Shown piece by piece: positions 7,495-23,400 of a stretch of 35,951 bases of DNA. The notes under the pieces are model-generated. The model was not told the DNA's origin. It was given only the letters and a program-made list of their open reading frames with translations, and did not search any database. Where the stretch lies: contig JAAUPR010000015.1 of the NCBI GenBank assembly GCA_012033055.1, positions 10,154 to 46,104 of the forward strand. Direction: 5' to 3'. This DNA comes from Limnothrix sp. RL_2_0 (lineage in GTDB: Bacteria; Cyanobacteriota; Cyanobacteriia; Cyanobacteriales; MRBY01). A program made the translations under genes and the position numbers. How positions within the stretch are numbered: position 1 is the stretch's first letter; every line of letters starts with the position of its first letter.

Positions 7495-9143
7495 TAGTTG
7501 CCTATTTGTTGTTTTCGTTCAGCCAGTTTGAGGCGAATTTCTTCGTGGTATTCCTTGGTGATGGGATAAAAATAAGCCAGTACTAAACCAACAATTAATG
7601 CCAAGGTCGGTAGAGGGGCGATCGCCACCCGGATGGCAAACAGAGCAGATTCCGGCTGAACCGGGGGCACATCTCCTGCGACAGACTCCACAAAGCCAGA
7701 CCACGAGAGCGCCTGACCCACGAGAAATAGACTCACCGCCAAACCCATTTTTTGCAACAACACCATAAAGCCATAGAAAACCCCTTCCCGTCGCTGCCCA
7801 GTATTCAGCTCATCCAGTTCGATTACATCCGGCACCATCGACCACGGAATCAAATAACTCACCGACACCCCACATCCCGCCAATACCGCACAAGCAAACA
7901 TCAAACCCACCTGTCCAGGCTGAAGGAAAAATAGTCCCACCTGCGCAATAATCCACAAAGCAACCCCACCAAAATACACCGCCTTTTTACCCCAGCGCCG
8001 ACTTGCCGCACTACCCCCAAACAGTAAGACCAAAGCCGTACCCTGCACCGCCAAAGCCACATTCGGGAACATCGCATCCGGCAAACCCATCCAACTAATC
8101 ACGAAGTACGGCAAGATAGATGCAGTGAGCTGAATCGCTAGCCACGACGCCATATAGATGCCGATAACAAACAGAAAAGGCTTATTACTAAACGCGATTT
8201 TGAGTTGTTCTTTAAAAGGGACGGGCGTTTCGCTGGCCTCATTGCTGGGGTGGGCAATCAATAGGTGCGTTTCCGTGGGCGACTGAATAAACGTATAACT
8301 ACTAACCGCCAATAAAATACCAAAGGATGCTGCTACAAATATCCACAGTGAGTCTAGTTGGAGCCAGTTCAGCCCGATAATACTTGCAAAGGACAAACCC
8401 GATAATGCCCCCAATATTTGCCCAAATAGTCTCCGTTGGGATTCATTTAGCACTGCGCTACGGCCTTTTTCTTGGAGGCGCAAGGTACACCAGAACAACG
8501 TGAGCAACGCAAAAATTGAGCAGACCAAACCCAGGATTAAATATTGTTTTTCGGGATTGTCGGGGTAAGCCTGAAACACGATACGGGCAACGATTAGCGA
8601 AAAAATACTGGAGCCGATAGAAAAGCTAAATCGAAAACTATTGAGACTGGTGCGTTCGTTATAGTCTTGGGTTAGCTCCGGTGTGAGGGCGGCGTAGGGC
8701 AAGTTTACAGCCGTGTAAGCGATATTAAACAGGATGCCCACGATGACGTAATAGCCGAAGAGAAACCAGTCATTTACTTGATCGACATCGCTAAAATGGG
8801 GCACGAGCCATTGGGCAAAAAAGATTACCACGAAGGGTATGGTTCCCCACAGCATCCACGGGATACGCCGTCCCCATTTAGTTTTGGTGCGATCGCTCAT
8901 CATGCCGACAATGGGATCGTTGATGGCATCGGAAATCTTCCCCAGCATCAAAATACTGCCTGCCAACCCCGGCGGCAATCCGGCAACCTGTGTGAAAAAG
9001 TAGAGTAGAAAAAAGACTAAAACGTTTGCTGTGAGGGCTGGCCCAATATCCCCGGCACCAAAGGCAATTTTTGTGGTGAGATTGAGCTTCTCGGCTTGGG
9101 GGGGCAGCGGGGTTGTCATGGGGGAATCTGAAATTACGGGCAT
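7494..9143 (-). CDS. GPH-type (MelB-like) sugar:cation symporter, MFS superfamily
   Basis: A 549-aa integral membrane protein with about 12 hydrophobic segments. The N-terminal part matches the glycoside-pentoside-hexuronide:cation symporter family: KIAFGAGDIGPAL, then a loop with ISDAINDPIVGMMSDRTKTK and WGRRIPW, the family's signature after helix 2. A second copy of this loop logic appears in the C-terminal half (SRRWGKKAVYF). The substrate cannot be read from the sequence; members carry disaccharides, pentosides or glucuronides. ATG at 9141-9143 is used; ATG at 9117-9119 (MTTPLPPQ) is an alternative, and neither has a clear ribosome site. The stop codon TAA (7494-7496) shares its last base with the ATT flank of the adjacent inverted-repeat element, so the insertion sits exactly at the gene's end. 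It is transcribed alone; the tRNA lies upstream. Confidence 0.85.
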   Translation of the reverse strand: MPVISDSPMTTPLPPQAEKLNLTTKIAFGAGDIGPALTANVLVFFLLYFFTQVAGLPPGLAGSILMLGKISDAINDPIVGMMSDRTKTKWGRRIPWMLWGTIPFVVIFFAQWLVPHFSDVDQVNDWFLFGYYVIVGILFNIAYTAVNLPYAALTPELTQDYNERTSLNSFRFSFSIGSSIFSLIVARIVFQAYPDNPEKQYLILGLVCSIFALLTLFWCTLRLQEKGRSAVLNESQRRLFGQILGALSGLSFASIIGLNWLQLDSLWIFVAASFGILLAVSSYTFIQSPTETHLLIAHPSNEASETPVPFKEQLKIAFSNKPFLFVIGIYMASWLAIQLTASILPYFVISWMGLPDAMFPNVALAVQGTALVLLFGGSAASRRWGKKAVYFGGVALWIIAQVGLFFLQPGQVGLMFACAVLAGCGVSVSYLIPWSMVPDVIELDELNTGQRREGVFYGFMVLLQKMGLAVSLFLVGQALSWSGFVESVAGDVPPVQPESALFAIRVAIAPLPTLALIVGLVLAYFYPITKEYHEEIRLKLAERKQQIGN

Positions 9144-13803: not shown

Positions 13804-14937
13804 ATGATGGAAGTGTCGGACTTGAAGCGATCGCTGGAACTAGTCAGTACGCGCCTGGGGAAAACCCAGGACTATCTTTGACTTAAAGACCCTTAACGCC
13901 AGAATTTTTGACCTAGAACAAATTGCTGCCCAGCCTGAATTTTGGGATGACCAAGATACGGCCCAAGGGACGCTACAGGAATTAAACGATCTCAAGGCGA
14001 ATGTGGAGCAATATCACCACTGGCGATCGCAGTACGAAGACGCAGAAGCCATCTGTGAACTACTAGAACTCGATGACGATCCAGCCCTCCTCACAGAAGC
14101 CCTCGAAAACCTCGACACCCTCCAGAAAGAATTAGACCGCTGGGAATTACAACAAATGCTCTCCGGCGAATATGATCCAAACGGTGCAGTTCTGACCATT
14201 AACGCTGGCGCTGGTGGAACCGATGCCCAAGATTGGGCTGAAATGTTGTTGCGCATGTACACTCGCTGGGGCGAAAAACAAGGCTACAAGGTGCGATCGC
14301 CGAAATTTCCGAGGGAGAAGAAGCCGGAATCAAATCCGCTACCCTCGAAATCGAAGGACGCTATGCCTTTGGGTATCTCAAAAGCGAAAAAGGAACCCAC
14401 CGCCTCGTCAGAATTTCCCCCTTTAACGCTAACGATAAACGACAAACTAGTTTTGCTGGCGTTGAAATCATGCCCGCCCTTACTAACGACGCAGTCAAAG
14501 TAGATATCCCCGACAAAGATTTAGAGATCACCACCACCCGCGCAGGCGGTAAAGGTGGACAAAACGTTAATAAAGTAGAAACGGCAGTACGCATTGTTCA
14601 TCTGCCCACTGGGGTGGCTGTACGCTGTACCCAAGAGCGATCGCAGTTACAAAATAAAGAAAAAGCCTTAGCCTTGCTAAAAGCAAAATTACTCATCATT
14701 GCCCAAGAACAACGCACCCAAGAAATCGCCGAAATCCGAGGCGACATGGTGGAAGCCGCATGGGGAAACCAAATTCGCAACTATGTATTTCATCCTTACC
14801 AAATGGTGAAAGATCTGCGGACTAGCCACGAAACAACCGATATCAATGGCGTGATGGATGGCGATTTAGATGCGTTTATCGAAGCCTATCTCCGTCAGGA
14901 AACTCAGTTGGGAGAGGCTCCCGCCAAAGACAATTAA
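13804..14937 (+). CDS. prfB: Peptide chain release factor 2 (programmed +1 frameshift), with a second unexplained frameshift
   Basis: RF2 releases polypeptides at UGA and UAA codons. The zero frame starts ATG ATG GAA GTG and ends at TGA (13879-13881) after 25 codons; the product continues in the +1 frame ([15 protein letters not shown]), the classic autoregulatory arrangement. Family motifs follow: the SPF stop-recognition tripeptide in RISPFNAND, and the catalytic GGQ in [15 protein letters not shown]. Between them, at GTG (14291-14293), the frame breaks again: the RF2 frame resumes as GCG ATC GCC GAA ([12 protein letters not shown]) one base earlier than read, so one G is missing directly before a HIP1 octamer. 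As written the protein ends in an unrelated tail and lacks GGQ. With both shifts repaired the product is about 377 aa, normal for RF2. RF2 should be essential, so a sequencing error is the likeliest explanation. Confidence 0.93.
13854..13882 (+). promoter_or_regulatory. RF2 programmed +1 frameshift site with upstream hairpin
   Basis: The slip site CTT TGA C (13876-13882) is preceded by an internal Shine-Dalgarno-like AGGA (13868-13871) four bases before CTT. CCTGGG (13854-13859) and CCCAGG (13865-13870) form a perfect 6-bp stem with loop GAAAA, ending just before ACTATCTTTGA, so the 3' arm contains most of the AGGA. In other bacteria, slow termination at this UGA when RF2 is scarce allows the shift; the hairpin is an addition seen here. 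Confidence 0.85.
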
Positions 14938-14977
14938 CCAAAGCAAACGACTGTAAATCAACAGTTTCAATTCTTCC

Positions 14978-15625
14978 TTAGCCAGAGATGCGGGGATATA
15001 AACATCGCTGAAATTGATGGCACTCAAGTTCTAAGCCACTGATCGCAAAAGATTTCGTTGTGCAAGCATATCGATCTACGGGGAGGGCCGTATAGGCATC
15101 GGGCGTTAATAAAATTTCCATTTGCCCCGCCAAATCTTCCCCTAATTTGCAAGTGATATTCATCTCCGCCCCAAAGAGATCTTTTTCGCCGATCACCAAA
15201 GTTTTTCCATAACCAATACCGATACTGCCGTAAATATTTCGTTCTGCTGGGGAGACTTCGTTCATCGCTTCAAAGGCACGAAAAATATCGAGGGCGGCTT
15301 CTAATGCTTGGTCTGGTCGGGGAAAGATTGCAAATAAATTGTCTGCTTCCTGCTTAATCACTTGTCCACCATTCCCGGCGATCGCCGGACAAGAAGCCTG
15401 TTCCATCTGGTGGATCATCGCCAGAAAATGAATGATGCCGTATTGAACAGACAAGCGCGAGAAACCACACATATCCAGCACCAAGATTGCCACATCCTGT
15501 CCAAAGACCTGCCAGATGACCTCATCCACTTGGGCCGAACGCTCTGGGTATTGGATGCGTTCTGAGAGGAGTTGTTTCAGATATGCGCGGTCAGGACGGG
15601 GCGATGGCTCTATGAGATCTGACAT
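14978..15625 (-). CDS. Class III adenylate/guanylate cyclase-like protein with an altered active site
   Basis: A 215-aa protein consisting almost entirely of a cyclase homology domain. The first metal aspartate is Asp51 in VLDMCGFSRLS; the loop GGQVIKQEADNLFAIF gives Lys91 (adenine contact) and the second metal Asp95, 44 residues later as in true cyclases. The transition-state pair is partly kept: Asn156 in GAEMNITCKLGED, but the usual Arg four residues on is Lys160. No sensory domain or membrane span is attached. It may be a weak cyclase, a heterodimer half or a degenerate nucleotide sensor. ATG at 15623-15625. A CRP-like palindrome lies about 250 bases upstream, which hints at cAMP control but does not prove it. 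Confidence 0.75.
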   Translation of the reverse strand: MSDLIEPSPRPDRAYLKQLLSERIQYPERSAQVDEVIWQVFGQDVAILVLDMCGFSRLSVQYGIIHFLAMIHQMEQASCPAIAGNGGQVIKQEADNLFAIFPRPDQALEAALDIFRAFEAMNEVSPAERNIYGSIGIGYGKTLVIGEKDLFGAEMNITCKLGEDLAGQMEILLTPDAYTALPVDRYACTTKSFAISGLELECHQFQRCLYPRISG

Positions 15626-15874
15626 GACTAGCAGGATTTACGGAGTTATCTTCTTTTCCTACGCCGAAACCCGTAGATTTCCTGATAAAGCACTAAAGCT
15701 GTTAAAAAAAAACTTGTATTTCTGTATTTGAATGCTGAAAATTTTGGTTTCTGGACAGAGGTACTTTGTTTGCATGATGAAGATCACCTTGGCCGTAAAC
15801 CATCAATCACAATTTTTACCGAAGAGATGAATTGATTTCAATTTGAGCTTGAACAGACTGTAAACACAAGAGTT

Positions 15875-15890
15875 TGTGACAAAGATCACT
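15875..15890. promoter_or_regulatory. CRP (SyCRP1)-like binding site
   Basis: TGTGACAAAGATCACT matches the TGTGA-N6-TCACA consensus of cAMP receptor proteins with a single mismatch in the half-sites. It sits 250 bases upstream of the cyclase-like gene and about 420 bases upstream of the small gene at 16308. Function is inferred from pattern only. Confidence 0.45.
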
Positions 15891-16130
15891 CTCCCCAAAA
15901 ATACTCATCACAACATAATTACTTACGATACTTTTTTGCTTAAATAAATACTGTACGTACGCAGTTTGTTGGCTTTGTAAACACTTTATTTAGTTCTTGT
16001 AAATAGCTTTAGAAAAATAAGGCAAATTACGGATTCTTCTGGATTTGATGATGCTTTTTAGCTTTAGAATGCCTAGTTTAAATTAGTTTTAGGGCTAGCA
16101 TAAAAAAGCTTGATGTGAAATAATGTTGTC

Positions 16131-16167
16131 TGAACAACTCAAATATCTTGTATATTTACGCCAAACA
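16131..16167 (+). promoter_or_regulatory. Upstream block shared with the second small paralogue (copy 1)
   Basis: The 37-nt stretch beginning TGAACAACTC and containing ATATTT and CCAA aligns without gaps to 16989-17025, with 27 of 37 bases identical by eye. It lies 177 bases before the ATG of the 59-aa gene. It may be a shared promoter or operator retained after duplication. Confidence 0.45.
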
Positions 16168-16238
16168 ACTGATGAATAAAGAATGTGAAAACTCTAAACT
16201 AATAGTCATATTCCAATAAAGAACTTTCTTAACTAAAA

Positions 16239-16263
16239 TTAAGTAAATTAGGTCTTTACTTAA
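16239..16263. promoter_or_regulatory. Perfect 9-bp inverted repeat before the 59-aa gene
   Basis: TTAAGTAAA, 7-base spacer, TTTACTTAA. It ends 44 bases before the ATG at 16308, a typical operator position. No regulator is known for it. Confidence 0.4.
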
Positions 16264-16307
16264 ATGCATTCATCAACTATTGATCTAACTTTCTCGTGAG
16301 CAAAGCA

Positions 16308-16487
16308 ATGAAAACCTTCTCCAGTATCGTCCAAGAAATTTATTCGTCAGGCCAAATTAGTCCTTCTCAGCAACAGGAATTGGAACAGTTGTTGTGGCTA
16401 TTGCCGAAGAATGATTCGACGATCGCCAAAACACTGAATGATCTGGAAGAAGATATTGTCAATGGCAAAATTGCTGTCTCTGTCTGA
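16308..16487 (+). CDS. Tiny conserved-type protein, paralogue 1 (59 aa)
   Basis: Starts ATG AAA ACC TTC; a GTG four codons earlier is in frame, but the ATG aligns exactly with the start of the 60-aa paralogue at 17132. Both proteins share the order I/V-Q-x-x-hydrophobic, S/TGQI, a Gln-rich turn, QLLW, a proline, L..LE and a closing NG/GN segment: here IVQEIYSSGQI, EQLLWLLPKND, TLNDLEEDIVNGKIAV. The composition is helical and acidic with no membrane span, cysteine or metal motif. Similar 55-65-aa proteins occur in other cyanobacteria as hypothetical genes; I know of no function. Two inverted repeats and a conserved block lie upstream. The glutaredoxin-like gene on the other strand converges on its end. 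Confidence 0.65.
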   Translation: MKTFSSIVQEIYSSGQISPSQQQELEQLLWLLPKNDSTIAKTLNDLEEDIVNGKIAVSV

Positions 16488-16512
16488 GCGGTTCCCTTAG
16501 GCCTGTGGCTAG

Positions 16513-16776
16513 TCAACTGAGATATGTCGCAAGTTTGTGTTCAAGTTTGGCGATCGCTATTCTCGGAGAAAACCTTGGTAAAACCACCTCTTGCCCTCCT
16601 TTGATGATGCACAAGACCGGAATTTCATATTGGTATTGCTCAAACCAGTCTGGATTAGCCGTGATATCCCGCATCTCAAGCGCGAACTCTACGGTTTGTA
16701 TCTGCGCTAATTTTTCTGCTAACCCCTCGCAGAGGTGACAACCGGGTTTGCTGTAGAAAATTAAAGTCTGCATCAT
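16513..16776 (-). CDS. Glutaredoxin-family (DUF836-like) thioredoxin-fold protein
   Basis: An 87-aa thioredoxin-fold protein. MQTLIFYSKPGCHLCEGLAE carries a CxxC active site (CHLC) at the end of the first strand, and the cis-proline motif is EIPVLC, followed by GGQEVVLPRF, which fits small glutaredoxin-like proteins of the DUF836 family. Such proteins are presumed thiol-disulphide oxidoreductases; partners are not known. I start at ATG 16774-16776; the next codon is also ATG, and a longer TTG-started form is unlikely. It lies on the opposite strand between the two small paralogues, its 3' end 25 bases from the end of the first one, so the two are convergent. Confidence 0.8.
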   Translation of the reverse strand: MMQTLIFYSKPGCHLCEGLAEKLAQIQTVEFALEMRDITANPDWFEQYQYEIPVLCIIKGGQEVVLPRFSPRIAIAKLEHKLATYLS

Positions 16777-16988
16777 GCCATCCAAAATTTTGCAAAAGGA
16801 CAATATACCTTGAATGCCCGCCTGGGTTCTGAAATGTTGCTGTAGAGGTTCCCTGCCGAAATCATTATTCCTTTGCTCTTAGTGACCTTGAACTTTTGCG
16901 AAGTAATTTTAAGGAATGATGGCTGCAAAATTAAGAAATGATTAAAAGTCAGAGTTTCCGTAAAAAGTCAGGACTTAATATTATGTAT

Positions 16989-17025
16989 TGAATAACTCGT
17001 ATATTTCACATATTTCCACCAAGCA
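16989..17025 (+). promoter_or_regulatory. Upstream block shared with the first small paralogue (copy 2)
   Basis: Begins TGAATAACTC and aligns gap-free to 16131-16167 (27 of 37 identical by eye, including AACTC, ATATTT and CCAA). It lies 143 bases before the ATG at 17132. Confidence 0.45.
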
Positions 17026-17101
17026 CAACTTGATTTATCGATATGAGGCGTTTTGCGTAAATCGAGGTTGGATATTGGCACTTTTTTAATCAATCACTTT
17101 G

Positions 17102-17118
17102 ATTATTTTCAAAATAAT
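17102..17118. promoter_or_regulatory. AT-rich palindrome before the 60-aa gene
   Basis: ATTATTTT C AAAATAAT, a perfect 8-bp inverted repeat 13 bases before the ATG and overlapping the region just 5' of the ribosome site. It could be an operator or simply AT-rich chance. Confidence 0.3.
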
Positions 17119-17131
17119 TTAGGAAAACATT

Positions 17132-17314
17132 ATGGATAGGCTCGTTGATACAATTCAGAAAGTTCTCGTTACTGGTCAAATCACTGATCAGCAGGCGACT
17201 CAGATTAATCAGCTCTTGTGGAAGACCCCCATGGATCAGCCTGTATTGAAGGCATTGAGCCGTTTGGAGAAGGAGTTATCCACGGGGAATGTGACAGCGA
17301 GCCATCATATGTAG
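17132..17314 (+). CDS. Tiny conserved-type protein, paralogue 2 (60 aa)
   Basis: MDRLVDTIQKVLVTGQI followed by NQLLWKTPMDQPV and LSRLEKELSTGNV shows the same spacing as the 59-aa protein at 16308, so the two are homologues from an old duplication. ATG at 17132 is supported by AGGA about 9 bases upstream. No signal peptide, membrane span or known motif; predicted to be two or three helices. The separation from its paralogue (0.65 kb) with the inverted glutaredoxin-like gene between suggests duplication followed by insertion, or a duplicated unit from which other genes were lost. Function unknown; the conserved upstream DNA argues that both are expressed under related control. Confidence 0.7.
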   Translation: MDRLVDTIQKVLVTGQITDQQATQINQLLWKTPMDQPVLKALSRLEKELSTGNVTASHHM

Positions 17315-17485
17315 GCGATATTGATCCATTGATTGATCGGGGCTGAAAGGAAAAAGTCCCTAGGGTGATCTGGTGTATTGTCGCGACTCTAGGATGCTAG
17401 AAAGGGATAATGATTGACCATTGGCTGGTTGTGTTGCTGGCCTAAATAAATTGGAGTGGGGCGATCGCCTGTCCTGATAATCAAT

Positions 17486-17530
17486 AAAAAACACTAGCTT
17501 TTCCCCTGAGGAACATATAGCTAGTGTTTT
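17486..17530 (-). terminator. Long-stem terminator, oriented for the minus strand
   Basis: AAAACACTAGCT (17488-17499) and AGCTAGTGTTTT (17519-17530) form a perfect 12-bp stem with a 19-base loop. Read on the minus strand the stem ends in six T, so it fits termination after the exported-protein gene ending at 17608; it could work weakly in the other direction. Confidence 0.65.
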
Positions 17531-17570
17531 AGGTGTTGAAGAGATATATTCGGGCGATCGCCGCTAGATA

Positions 17571-17615
17571 TTCGTCTTTAAAACTTTCGTCTTTAAAACT
17601 TTCGTCTTTAAAACT
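17571..17615. repeat. Three tandem 15-bp repeats containing in-frame stop codons
   Basis: The unit TTCGTCTTTAAAACT occurs three times without variation (17571-17585, 17586-17600, 17601-17615). The third copy covers the end of the gene at 17608. Because 15 is a multiple of three, each copy places a TAA in the same frame of that gene. Confidence 0.95.
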
Positions 17616-18156
17616 GAGGTTGTTCAAACTCACGGTTAACAAAACCGAGTTCAAATAACTGTTGATAAGATTTGCCGCCGAGGTCGCTAACGGGACTCTG
17701 GGAGCGAATCACCTGAATGAGCAGCGGTACGGACAGTTCAGGTTGTCCTTGGATACGGTGGACAAGGGCTAGACGATAGGTTGCTGTGTCTCGCATGTCG
17801 CCCGCAGCGATCGCCGATTCACGCTCTGCGTCATACACTGAGTTGTCTAAACCTTGAAAACTGTTGGCTAGCTCGATGTGGAAGTTGGAAAGCTGGTTAA
17901 ATACTTGACGGGCTTCTTTGAGCCGATTTACTGCTGTGTCGTAGTCTTTGGCTGAAATTGCGGCGATCGCCTGATCCATCAAGGCCGAACCACCCGCCAT
18001 ACTGAGGATACTATCACTTTGGGTGAAAGGGCGTAGCTCACTTAAGTTTTGTTGGACAGCCTCAGGCTGCGCAGAAATTGGTGGCATAATTGCCAGAGAG
18101 CACCCCATGGCCAAACTAGCGAGTGGAATCAAACGATGGATATTGATTGCTTTCAT
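17608..18156 (-). CDS. Exported helical (TPR-like) protein, function unknown
   Basis: A 182-aa protein when started at ATG 18154-18156 (MKAINIHRLIPLASLAMGCS), which gives a signal peptide ending PPISAQ; a longer form starting at 18234 would bury it. The mature part is helical, with AIAAISAKDYDTAVNRLKEA and YRLALVHRIQGQPELSVPLL resembling degenerate tetratricopeptide helices. It is probably periplasmic or lumenal. The gene is divergent from the subtilase, with about 95 bases between starts, so the two may share a control region. The stop codon lies in the 15-bp tandem repeat. The cysteine at residue 19 lies inside the hydrophobic core (LAMGCS), so a lipoprotein is a weaker alternative. I do not recognise a named family. 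Confidence 0.65.
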   Translation of the reverse strand: MKAINIHRLIPLASLAMGCSLAIMPPISAQPEAVQQNLSELRPFTQSDSILSMAGGSALMDQAIAAISAKDYDTAVNRLKEARQVFNQLSNFHIELANSFQGLDNSVYDAERESAIAAGDMRDTATYRLALVHRIQGQPELSVPLLIQVIRSQSPVSDLGGKSYQQLFELGFVNREFEQPQF

Positions 18157-18250
18157 AATTTTCGTCAAGCGTTGATTTGACACAATAACAATTTGTATAC
18201 GGTTCACATCTCGATCCCGCAAGGGGATGGACAAGGAGAGGGTTTGCAGT

Positions 18251-20346
18251 ATGGCAGCACCAGAAGAAGCAATGCCACAACAACAAGGTCTTATTTTACA
18301 ACGGGGACAAGCGGAACTCTTACTACATAAGCTAGATGATCGCCTAACCGTTGCATTCCGGGATCCAGATGTAGATCTACTGGAAATAGTTCCGGGGCTA
18401 ATGTATCGTCCGTTACCGTTACTCCATAAGGATTTTCTGATGCAGGAGGTGATTGTGCCGCCGGAGGATCTGGAAATGGTCTTGGATTCGGCGCGGGCTA
18501 GCGAGGAAATCCTGTTTGCAAGCCATGTCTATCAGTTGGCCTATTCGATTGACAGTTTTGTTTATCTGACGAATCAGATGACACTCCAGTTTGAAAATAG
18601 CTTGTCTAATAATGAGCATGTGGGTTTTGGCGATCGCCACAATTTAAAACTTATCCGGCCAATTGTGGGGCTAGAAAATACCTACCTCTACGAACTGACA
18701 AAAGATAGTACCGCAAATCCCATTAAACTGGCGAATCAACTGCGGGTTTTACCGGGGATTAATCTTGCTGAGGCGAATGTGATATTGCCCCAAGAATCCC
18801 TCGGCGTGCCTAGTGTAATACCCAGTGACCCTTTGTTTCAGGAGCAATGGTATCTCCACAGTCCAGATCTCGATAGCCCCGAACTCCCCCAAGGGATCGA
18901 TGCGGTGGGGGCATGGGAAATTACGAAGGGTGATCGTTCGGTGGTGGTGGCGATCGCCGATGATTCTATCGATCTTGACCATCCCGATTTTCAAGGCGAA
19001 GGCAAAATTGTTGCCCCCTACGACTTTGGCGACAATGACTTTTTACCCAACCCAGACCATGACCAAGAAAGTCACGGTACAGCCTGCGCAGGGTTGGCGA
19101 TCGCCGAAGAAACAGGCACAGGTATTGTTGGCGTTGCCCCCGATTGCGCCCTGATGCCCTTGAAAACCACAGGCTACCTAGACGACGATTCCATCGAAGC
19201 GATCTTCACCTGGGCCGTTAACAAAGGAGCCGATGTCATTTCCTGTAGCTGGAATGCCGCCGCCGTTCATTTCCCCCTGTCCCTCCGCCAAAGTGCCGCC
19301 ATCCATTACGCAGCGACCGAAGGACGAGATGGTAAAGGCTGTGTGATTGTATTTGCAGCGGGTAATGCTAACCGTCCCCTTGATGGCACGATCTACGAAC
19401 GAGGTTGGCACAACAAAATGCTCTATGGTCCCACCGCTTGGCTTAACGGCTACGCCACCCACCCCGATGTGATTGCCGTGGGAGCCTGTACCAGTAATAA
19501 CCTCAAAGCTATCTACAGTAACTGGGGTTCAGAATTGTCCGTATGTGCCCCCAGTAATAACGCTGCCCCCGGTATGTGGTTTGCGGAACATGGCTATTTG
19601 CCCACCGCCCCCGAAATTCAGGACGAATTAGCCGGAGCGACGATCCTCAGTACCGATGCTCTAGGGGATTTGGGTTATGGTCAGGGACATTTTACACGGG
19701 ACTTTGGGGGAACATCGAGCGCTTGTCCGTTGGTGGCTGGGGTGGCTGCTTTAGTTCTCTCGGCAAACCCGATGCTCTCAGCGTTAGAGGTGAAGGAGAT
19801 TATCGAAAATAGTGCGGAGAAGATTATTGATCCCCGCCGCGATCGCCAACTGGGTTTACAGCTCGGTACTTATAATGCTCAGGGTCATTCCCGTTGGTTT
19901 GGCTATGGCAAAGTGAATGCAAAGGCGGCGGTACAGATTGCCAGTACTCAGTTTGTTGATGTGGAAGATCCCCAATTTTCTGCCGAGGAAACGAATGATC
20001 TCGAAATGGATATCCCCGATGATTCCACCGCTGGGGTGACTAGTCTGGTGGCATTTGAAGATGTGGGGGTGATTAAGGATGTGGCGGTACAGGTGCGATC
20101 GCCCACGAATACTTAGGAGATATCGAAATTCATCTGCGCACCGTCAACGGCAAAACCTTACTATTGCAAAACCGTACCCTCGGCAGCCAAACCATCCTTA
20201 ATAAAACCTATACCCCTACCAATACCCCGACCCTCAAAGAATTAGTGGGACTGGATATTACCGGAGAATGGTCGCTGTGGGTGGTAGATCACTCACCGAC
20301 GGATACAGGCTCCCTTAAAAATTGGTCACTCCGCTTTGATTATTAA
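18251..20346 (+). CDS. Subtilisin-family (S8) serine protease with P-domain, frameshifted near its 3' end
   Basis: The catalytic triad is visible: Asp in VAIADDSIDLDHPDF, His in ESHGTACAG, Ser in FGGTSSACPLVAG, with the oxyanion Asn in FAAGNAN. About 200 residues before the triad form an N-terminal prodomain-like region without a signal peptide. The frame ends at a TAG (20114-20116) just after VAVQVRSPTNT. In the frame one base back it continues as AIAHEYLGDIEIHLRTVNG and ends GSLKNWSLRFDY at 20346, a typical proprotein-convertase P-domain. The break lies at 20093-20095 in GGTGCGATCGCC, where one extra G restores frame. Start is taken at ATG 18251 behind AAGGAGAGG; ATG 18227 is an alternative. 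The intact product would be about 698 aa. Confidence 0.88.
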
Positions 20347-20421: not shown

Positions 20422-23400
20422 TTACTTATCGATGGGGAGTAGCCATTTATTGAGTACGGTGCGCATGGTGTCAGGGTTGATGGGTTTACTGAGATAGTCA
20501 TCCATCCCCGCTGCAATACATTTTTCGCGATCGCCTTTCATCGCATTAGCCGTCAGCGCCACGATAGGAATCGATTGATAAAACTCCCCAGCATTCCCTT
20601 GACGAATTTGCTGTGTTGTCTCGTAGCCGTTCATTTCTGGCATCAGACAATCCATCAAAACACAGGTAAACGGTTCTTCTAAGGATGATTCCCGCAGGAG
20701 CCACAGCGCTTCAACACCGTTCATCGCGGTACTAATTTGCAAGCCCATTTTTTTCAGTAAACCTCGAATCACCATTTGATTCACTTTGTTATCTTCCACG
20801 AGGAGCAGGCGAGTTTGTTCTGGATAGACGAGAATCTCTGGTTTATTGCGCTTGGAGTCATTGCCAGATGAATTTGCCGAACGTTGTACCACCGCAGTAC
20901 CATCACTGACATTCACTAAAGCATCTAGGAGTTCCGATGGCATAATCGGTTTGGTCAGATAGGCTGCCACATCTAAATCAATATTGTTGATCTCAGCGGA
21001 TTTGTTGGCGATCGCCGTCATCATTAAAATAGATAACTTCGTATCCCTTGCCTTAGACTGCAAAACTTTTGCGACATTAACACTCCTCATGTCCGGCAAC
21101 GTGCGATCCATCAGCACAATATCAAACCGAGCCGTTGGCGATCGCCCATCAAACACTTCCAGAGCCTCCGTCCCACTAGCCGCTTCCGTCACCTCTACTC
21201 CCCAGATCTCTAGCTGACTGCGTAGGATTTCCCGCTGAATCTCATTGTCATCCACCAACAATAATTTCAAAGGCGAAACACGGGGCAGCGGCAGCAGATC
21301 ATTAGCCTCATCACTCGTTTGTAGCTCAATAGTAAATCTGAACTGACTTCCTTTACCCACCTCACTCGTTGCCGTAATATTCCCCCCCATCAACTCACAG
21401 AGTTTTTTGGTGATAGTAAGCCCTAAACCTGTACCGCCATACTTGCGTGTGGTACTCGCATCCATCTGTGTAAACGGCTCAAACAAATGATCTAAAGTAT
21501 CTTGGGGAATACCAATACCTTGATCCATCACAGTACCCGTAAAGATAAGTCCAGAATCCTTTCGGGCCAGACGACAAGTTAACAAAATAGCGCCCCGCTC
21601 CGTAAACTTGATGGCATTGCTGGTGAGGTTAATTAAAATTTGTCGGAGTCGTCCCGGATCCCCATTCACCAGAGTATGGTTGATCCCCCGCAAATCAAGG
21701 ATCAGCTCTAGTCCTTTTTCTTCTGATTTGAGTGCCATCGTTCTCGCAAAGCTACCAAGGAGTTCGTGGAGGTCAAAGTTGATATGTTCGATCACCAGTT
21801 TGCCTGCTTCTACTTTGGAGAAATCGAGAATATCGTTAATCAGGGACAGGAGTGATTCGGCACTGGATTGGGCAATATTAATGTGCGATCGCTGTTGATC
21901 GGTCAATTCACTATCCTGTAATAGATGGAGCATCCCGATCACGCCGTTCATGGGGGTGCGAATCTCGTGGCTCATATTGGCGAGGAACATGCTCTTGGTT
22001 TGGGCGGCACTTTCGGCGGTTTCTTTGGCGCGGATTAGGGCTTTTTCGACTTGTTTATAGTCACTCACTTCCCAGTTGATGCCGATCAATTGTTTAACTT
22101 CTCCGGTTTCGTTGCGGATAATGATGGCATTGGATTTGATGTAGTGGATGTCGCCGTTGGTGTGGATTACGCGGAATTCTTGGGCGAAGTCGTCTTGGTT
22201 GTTGGCGATCGCCGCTTCATAAATAGCAAGGCATAGTCCCACATCATCGGGGTGAATTTTATTAGCCCAATCGTCAAAATTATTGTTAAAGTCACCGGGT
22301 GTAATGTCGTATAGAGCATACATTTGCTCATCCCAGATCAACCGACTATCAGCGTAGTTATATTCCCAAATGCCAATTTTTGCGGACTGGGTGGCGATCG
22401 CCAAGCGTTGGCTAATGTCTTGTACAGCAAGTTCTGTTTCCTTGCGATCACTGATGTCAGTATGAGTGCCGATTATGCGGGTAATTGTGCCCTGCTCGTC
22501 CCTTGCCATGGTCTTACCACGGGTCAAAATCCATTTGTAGGATCCATCCTTACACCGCAGACGATGTTCACAATAGTAAGTCGGGATTTTATCTTGGAAA
22601 TACTGCTCTAGCTGCTCATAAACTAATGCACGATCTTCTGGATGGATGCGACTATCCCATTCTGCAAATTTATTTTCTATTTCATCATCACGATAACCGA
22701 GGATCGCTTTCCACTGGGGTGAAAGGAACACCTGATCATTCGCGTAATTCCAATCCCAAATGCCATCCCCTGAACCTTCGAGGGCAAATTGCCAACGGAC
22801 TTCACTTTCTTTGAGGGCATTCACCGCAAGCTGTCGGTCAGTAATATCTAAGGCTGTCCCAAACACCCGGATCACTTTCCCCTCGTCATTCGTCTCCACT
22901 TCTCCCCGTCCTTCGTGATAGCGGATTGAACCATCCGGCAAAATCGCTCTGTAGTCAATAACGTAAGGAATATGATGGGCGATCGCCTGCTCAATCCCAT
23001 GGCGCAATTTCGCTTGATCATCCGGGTGAACCATCTGCAACGCCTCCTCGTAAGATGGCGCAGGCTCATGCGGGTCGAGACCAAACATCAACGCAATTTC
23101 CGATGACCAAGTGATCACTTGTGTAGGTACATCCAATGACCAGTTACCGATGTGGGCAATACGCTGCGCTTCTAGCAAAATATTTTGGCTTTGCTGGACT
23201 TTTTCCTCCGCCTCCTTGCGATCAGTGATATCTGTAATCGTACCGACCATGCCAATGATCTTGTCTTTAATATTCTTTTCTGGATTGCTCTGGACATACA
23301 CCCAGCGGATTGATCCATCTGGATGCAAAAAGCGATGCTCACAGGAAGTCGGTATTTGTTCTTTATAGGCCTGTTGCCACATGCTCATGACGTGATTTTT

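What the first reader, a model, noticed from the sequence alone, without database searches (positions are those of the whole stretch)
14291..20104. Two deletions in the identical 12-mer GGTGCGATCGCC: HIP1-linked error or mutational hot spot
Both broken genes lack one G in the same context, while intact GGTGGCGATCGCC occurs elsewhere (18946-18958 in the same subtilase gene; 22390-22402). HIP1 contains GATC and CGATCG, both known cyanobacterial methylation targets, and methylated bases are a known source of deletions in nanopore base calling. If the deletions are real, HIP1 flanks would be deletion hot spots.
Basis: inference. Interest (0 to 1): 0.72.

Follow-up and report, generated by a model that had tools for sequence, protein, structure and literature searches.

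The report
HIP1-linked single-base deletions, sequencing artefact
Two genes in this cyanobacterial draft genome each lack one base beside the same repeated DNA word, and the same fault recurs across the draft even in genes a cell needs to live, so it is most likely a systematic sequencing error and not real mutations.

Summary
In detail: GGTGCGATCGCC occurs twice (14290-14301, 20092-20103), each at a one-base frame break, in prfB (19 of 19 relatives have one more base) and in a subtilase (2 of 2). The HIP1 link is real across the sampled genome. In 1.07 Mb of this assembly 52 of 1,219 scorable HIP1 sites show a deletion-type frame change, against 1 of 467 in two congeners. The rate is 21 of 73 when GGT, GGC or GGA precedes HIP1. 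The same flanks at least 60 nt from HIP1 give 20 of 2,856; GATC away from HIP1 gives 15 of 2,938. Genes hit include pheS (no second full copy found), ispE and prfB, so these are errors, not mutations. The nanopore/methylation cause is not supported: 14 of 33 scaffold gaps are flanked by identical 127-nt ends (a k=127 de Bruijn assembly of short reads), contigs break at homopolymers, and 4 of 129 contig ends start exactly at GCGATCGC (0.23 expected). The pattern resembles the strand-asymmetric high-frequency indels published for Ion Torrent (C/G deletions in 2-3-base runs). The platform is inferred, and why HIP1 triggers the loss is unresolved. Roughly 200 such deletions are extrapolated for the draft.

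The parts
14290..14301 (+). GGTGCGATCGCC in prfB, one base short; site of the frame break
20092..20103 (+). GGTGCGATCGCC in the subtilase gene, one base short; site of the frame break
13804..14937 (+). prfB (release factor 2): programmed +1 site near the start, then the HIP1-linked break
13876..13882 (+). CTT TGA C, the expected programmed +1 frameshift site of prfB (motif recalled); a natural shift, not an error
   Evidence: read; the frame model also shifts here
18227..20346 (+). subtilase with C-terminal P-domain, cut by the break at 20092-20103
7617..7629 (-). full-length GGTGGCGATCGCC
18946..18958 (+). full-length GGTGGCGATCGCC in the same subtilase gene
22390..22402 (+). full-length GGTGGCGATCGCC

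Best explanation
The genes are most likely intact in the organism. The assembly lacks a base because the reads under-call the GG doublet at the edge of the 10-base palindrome GGCGATCGCC (HIP1 plus one base on each side), most strongly when GGN precedes it, in a short-read data set of flow type (most likely Ion Torrent) assembled with a k=127 de Bruijn assembler. Shown here: the HIP1 link, the flank dependence, the excess of deletions over insertions, the hits in essential genes, the 127-nt overlaps, and contig breaks at homopolymers and at HIP1. Inferred: the platform, the presence of both G and GG forms in the reads, and the physical step, namely that the palindrome in the template (hairpin or pairing between neighbouring strands) lets the polymerase finish only one of the two G additions in its flow.
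For: HIP1: 52 deletion-type, 8 insertion-type, 1,159 none, 628 unsure of 1,847 sites in G000 against 1, 2, 464, 183 of 650 in congeners. The 20 stretches not chosen by the motif: 19, 5, 443, 237 of 704. Flanks: 21 of 73 with GGH before HIP1 against 20 of 2,856 for the same flanks at least 60 nt from HIP1. pheS, ispE and prfB broken at HIP1; no second full pheS found. 33 N-runs, all of 100: 14 with identical 127-nt flanks, 1 with 48, 18 with none, of which 16 end in a run of 3 or more on at least one side (random 0.178). Contig ends: 25 of 129 begin with a run of 4 or more (random 3.2%), 4 begin exactly with GCGATCGC (0.23 expected, P 9e-5). C7-C8 runs: 2 deletion- and 3 insertion-type of 34 scorable. 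Ion Torrent strand-asymmetric high-frequency indels: 82% in runs of two to three, dominated by C and G deletions, motif suspected (PMC3623719, passages).
Against: No reads, platform or assembler name were available. A simple dephasing model gave no HIP1-specific loss. PMC3623719 (abstract) says short homopolymers are typically over-called in such data, and PMC4719071 (passages) that insertions exceed deletions overall, so the GG loss fits only the special strand-asymmetric class. 18 of 52 deletions are at sites that still read GGCGATCGCC. The short-to-full count ratio is not raised for GGY. Of 14 sites with a relative spanning them, 2 showed no gap at HIP1.
Confidence: 0.76

Rival explanations
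1. Nanopore (or other native-DNA) base calling loses a base next to methylated CGATCG/GATC inside HIP1.
For: Modification-mediated nanopore errors are published (PMC10687267, abstract). CGATCG methyltransferases are nearly coextensive with abundant HIP1 (PMC4390886, passages). CGATCG outside full HIP1 shows a somewhat raised rate (5 of 179, 4 of 163).
Against: 127-nt overlaps at 14 of 33 gaps and between contigs C196 and C137; 200 contigs; homopolymer breaks. GATC at least 60 nt from HIP1: 15 of 2,938. Whether G000 has these methyltransferases was not tested.
Confidence: 0.1
2. Read-correction or graph software merges the many similar words around HIP1 and drops a base.
For: HIP1 is very frequent (66 in the window), so its flanks recur; contig ends fall exactly at HIP1.
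Against: Correction towards the commoner form should mostly add G, since both flanks are G at 799 of 1,159 unbroken sites; deletions outnumber insertions 52 to 8.
Confidence: 0.1
3. A true mutational hot spot: HIP1 flanks lose a G in the living organism.
For: The pattern is motif-bound and mostly deletion.
Against: prfB, pheS and ispE would be lost (essentiality is established knowledge, not tested). The HIP1-bearing congeners show 1 of 467. Homopolymer breaks in the same assembly point to a technical source.
Confidence: 0.02

Closest known systems
Strand-asymmetric high-frequency indels of Ion Torrent PGM data (PMC3623719; passages seen)
   Same: Single-base deletions of C or G in runs of two to three, recurring at fixed sites, a sequence motif suspected by the authors.
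   Different: Here the motif is HIP1 with a GGN flank; strand asymmetry and platform could not be tested without reads.
Modification-mediated nanopore errors (PMC10687267; abstract seen)
   Same: Systematic errors tied to a short motif that holds methylation targets.
   Different: Assembly marks point to short reads; GATC away from HIP1 shows only a low rate.
HIP1, highly iterated palindrome GCGATCGC (PMC4390886; passages seen)
   Same: The word itself, with internal GATC and CGATCG methylation targets.
   Different: No new property of HIP1 in the cell is indicated; its edge is misread or misassembled.

Membership tests
Ion Torrent strand-asymmetric high-frequency indel | deletion of C or G in a run of two to three bases | tested here: met
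   Where a relative keeps HIP1 and the gap falls in it, one G of GG or one C of CC (or of a slightly longer C run) is lost; not all 14 sites show this
Ion Torrent strand-asymmetric high-frequency indel | indel carried by reads of one orientation | not testable with these tools
   no reads held
Ion Torrent strand-asymmetric high-frequency indel | flow-type short-read data | tested here: inconclusive
   k=127 overlaps and homopolymer breaks agree; platform not named
Nanopore modification-mediated error | native long reads | tested here: inconclusive
   127-nt overlaps and fragmentation speak for short reads; a hybrid assembly is not excluded
Nanopore modification-mediated error | errors at the methylated motif in general | tested here: inconclusive
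   GATC away from HIP1 15 of 2,938; CGATCG outside HIP1 5 of 179 and 4 of 163
Nanopore modification-mediated error | matching methyltransferase in the genome | not tested
   no search made in G000
In vivo mutational hot spot | deletions compatible with life (essential genes spared) | tested here: not met
   prfB, pheS, ispE broken at HIP1; essentiality from established knowledge

The most novel reading that the evidence does not exclude
HIP1 flanks are slippery in the living population, so that G and GG forms coexist at many loci and the assembly recorded the shorter form.
Probability: 0.02. Interest if true: 0.85.

Novelty: not a real feature. Interest (0 to 1): 0.33.

Why it matters
Roughly 200 HIP1-linked deletions are expected in this draft (extrapolated), essential genes among them, so gene-loss or pseudogene claims made from it are unsafe. 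HIP1 is very frequent in many cyanobacteria (PMC4390886), so other drafts made from similar reads may hide the same fault; that was not tested. If the platform is confirmed, HIP1 with a GGN flank would be a concrete motif with which to study the unexplained strand-asymmetric indels of Ion Torrent data.

Tried and rejected
Counting the 12-mer across genomes as a proxy: raised for GGT in G000 (79 to 324; pooled five congeners 208 to 1,438; Fisher P 5e-4), not for GGY (126 to 835 = 0.151; congeners 0.104 to 0.161). Across the 148 genomes of the order the ratio varies widely between lineages, so it is no test.

Naming the organism: genome contigs gave no relative for the window's subtilase; with the G004 protein it gave 5 loci, two Symploca MAGs (52% and 50%), a Pseudanabaenales MAG (47%) and two weak distant hits.

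Literature: of the searches on HIP1 or on cyanobacteria with sequencing errors (also 58), no title or abstract start listed reports sequencing errors at HIP1. Only part of the hits was listed (20 of 169, 20 of 27, 1 of 1, 12 of 1,003, 10 of 10), in one open-access library. Searches were on nanopore and Ion Torrent errors in general. PMC9239245 passages mention HIP1 and sequencing errors separately.

Viterbi frame calls (122 in G000, 18 in controls, both flanks at least 150 nt) include many ordinary gene overlaps and were not used as an error count. In one search one Fisher test used 2,843 as a denominator; the right sum is 2,856, redone.

Full report
What is there. GGTGCGATCGCC occurs twice in the window, at 14290-14301 and 20092-20103, and GGTGGCGATCGCC three times. 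HIP1 (GCGATCGC) occurs 66 times against 0.42 expected. The first site lies in prfB: Pfam PCRF is split across it and RF-1 follows. The gene's programmed +1 site, CTT TGA C at 13876-13882, is in place (motif recalled). All 19 relatives aligned have one base more at the HIP1 site. The second site lies in a subtilase whose P-domain is cut off; both relatives that span it, in G004 and G005, read through (2 of 2). The relatives differ at the affected codons, so they do not fix which base is missing.

Is it tied to HIP1? I trained a three-periodic coding model on the assembly's own long ORFs and asked at each site whether the reading frame changes across it. In the window plus 60 stretches of G000 (1.07 Mb), 1,847 HIP1 sites gave 52 deletion-type changes, 8 insertion-type, 1,159 none and 628 unsure. 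In 0.40 Mb of two congeners 650 sites gave 1, 2, 464 and 183. The 40 stretches were laid around copies of GGTGCGATCGCC. The 20, which hold none, gave 19, 5, 443 and 237 of 704, so the choice does not make the effect.

Context (deletions over scorable sites). GGTGCGATCGC 12 of 42, GGCGCGATCGC 6 of 12, GGAGCGATCGC 3 of 19; in the congeners 0 of 6, 0 of 5 and 0 of 11. Full forms: GGTGGCGATCGC 3 of 65, GGCGGCGATCGC 3 of 99, GGAGGCGATCGC 4 of 45. At least 60 nt from HIP1: GGTGC 6 of 1,009, GGCGC 8 of 917, GGAGC 6 of 930, GGTGGC 5 of 494, GATC 15 of 2,938. CGATCG outside full HIP1 is intermediate: 5 of 179 for [ACT]CGATCG and 4 of 163 for GCGATCG[AGT]. So neither the flank nor GATC alone gives the effect. 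An earlier test on 77 of the 79 copies of the 12-mer in the genome gave 12 deletion-type, 0 insertion-type, 15 none and 50 not scorable, and 0 deletion-type of 46 GGTGGCGATCGCC sites, 29 of them not scorable.

Which base? The 60 frame-changing HIP1 sites were compared with the relatives' loci then held; 14 had a relative spanning them. Nine show a one-base gap within about 10 nt of HIP1, three a gap there among others (L062 7937, L096 7691, L118 1645), two none (L062 10248, L115 17202). Where the relative keeps HIP1 and the gap falls in it, the loss is one G of the 5' GG or one C of the 3' CC (L077 610; L081 1605; L118 537, 4450, 6937; L062 7937 with other gaps nearby). At L077 10456 the gap lies just outside HIP1, and at L062 10248 the relative keeps HIP1 with no gap.

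Error or mutation? For 10 broken genes both pieces were scanned against NCBIfam: 5 of 10 match the same families on both sides (an acetate-CoA-ligase-like enzyme, a helicase, a sensor kinase, ispE, a mannose-1-phosphate guanylyltransferase-like protein); for the other 5 the pieces have no family in common. By Pfam prfB, a PEP-synthase-like enzyme and pheS are split within a domain; the subtilase is split between domains; the fifth gene has a molybdopterin oxidoreductase after the break and no family before it. For pheS no second full copy was found; the other match is a 25-residue overlap at a contig end. The copy number of ispE was not tested. A cell without functional prfB, pheS and ispE is not expected to live (established knowledge), so the deletions are most likely not in the organism.

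Which error? The assembly has 200 contigs. All 33 N-runs in the stretches are exactly 100 long; 14 are flanked by identical 127-nt ends, one by 48, 18 by none, and 16 of those 18 end in a run of three or more on at least one side (random 0.178). Contigs C196 and C137 overlap by exactly 127 nt. That marks a de Bruijn graph with k=127, the largest k of SPAdes (recalled), hence short reads. Of 129 distinct contig ends 25 start with a run of four or more (random 3.2%, P 6e-13), and 4 start exactly with GCGATCGC (0.23 expected, P 9e-5). A G/GG disagreement between reads would branch the graph at that base, so both forms were probably in the reads (inference). Runs of seven or eight C or G show 2 deletion- and 3 insertion-type changes of 34 scorable (congeners 0 of 6). 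These marks suggest flow-type reads. PMC3623719 (passages) describes strand-asymmetric high-frequency indels in Ion Torrent data: dominated by C and G deletions, 82% in runs of two to three, more often shared between runs than chance, cause unknown. The HIP1 deletions fit that class.

What is not explained. Why the palindrome and the GGN before it matter is not shown. A simple dephasing model gave no HIP1-specific loss. My preferred step, as inference only, is a hairpin or pairing of neighbouring template strands at GGCGATCGCC that stalls the polymerase at the doublet. Correction software acting on HIP1-rich words should mostly add G, the opposite of what is seen, but was not tested. Methylation does not survive amplification (established knowledge) and remains possible only if native reads contributed.

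Results against. Ion Torrent data are reported to over-call short runs typically (PMC3623719, abstract) and to have more insertions than deletions overall (PMC4719071, passages). The short-to-full count ratio is raised for GGT but not for GGY. Eighteen of 52 deletions are at sites that still read GGCGATCGCC. The platforms of the control genomes are unknown, and 628 of 1,847 sites could not be scored.

Verdict. The observation, the HIP1 link and the choice 'error' stand; the nanopore/methylation cause is not supported. From 52 in 1.07 Mb and 19 in 0.40 Mb about 200 such deletions are expected in this draft (inference).

Noticed in passing
window 13876-13882: prfB keeps the expected programmed +1 frameshift site (CTT TGA C; motif recalled), which the frame model detected on its own.
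   Followed up: partly
G000 contig C17 (L212 start, L258 end): The first and last 127 bases are identical, so this 3,339-base contig may be a circular replicon of about 3.2 kb or a tandem repeat.
   Followed up: no
L074 10623, L085 8769 and 8924, L112 4366: Frame changes at runs of seven or eight G or C, probably homopolymer indels of the same assembly.
   Followed up: partly
window 34260, minus strand: A further frame change called in the window, away from HIP1; it may be an ordinary gene overlap or another indel.
   Followed up: no
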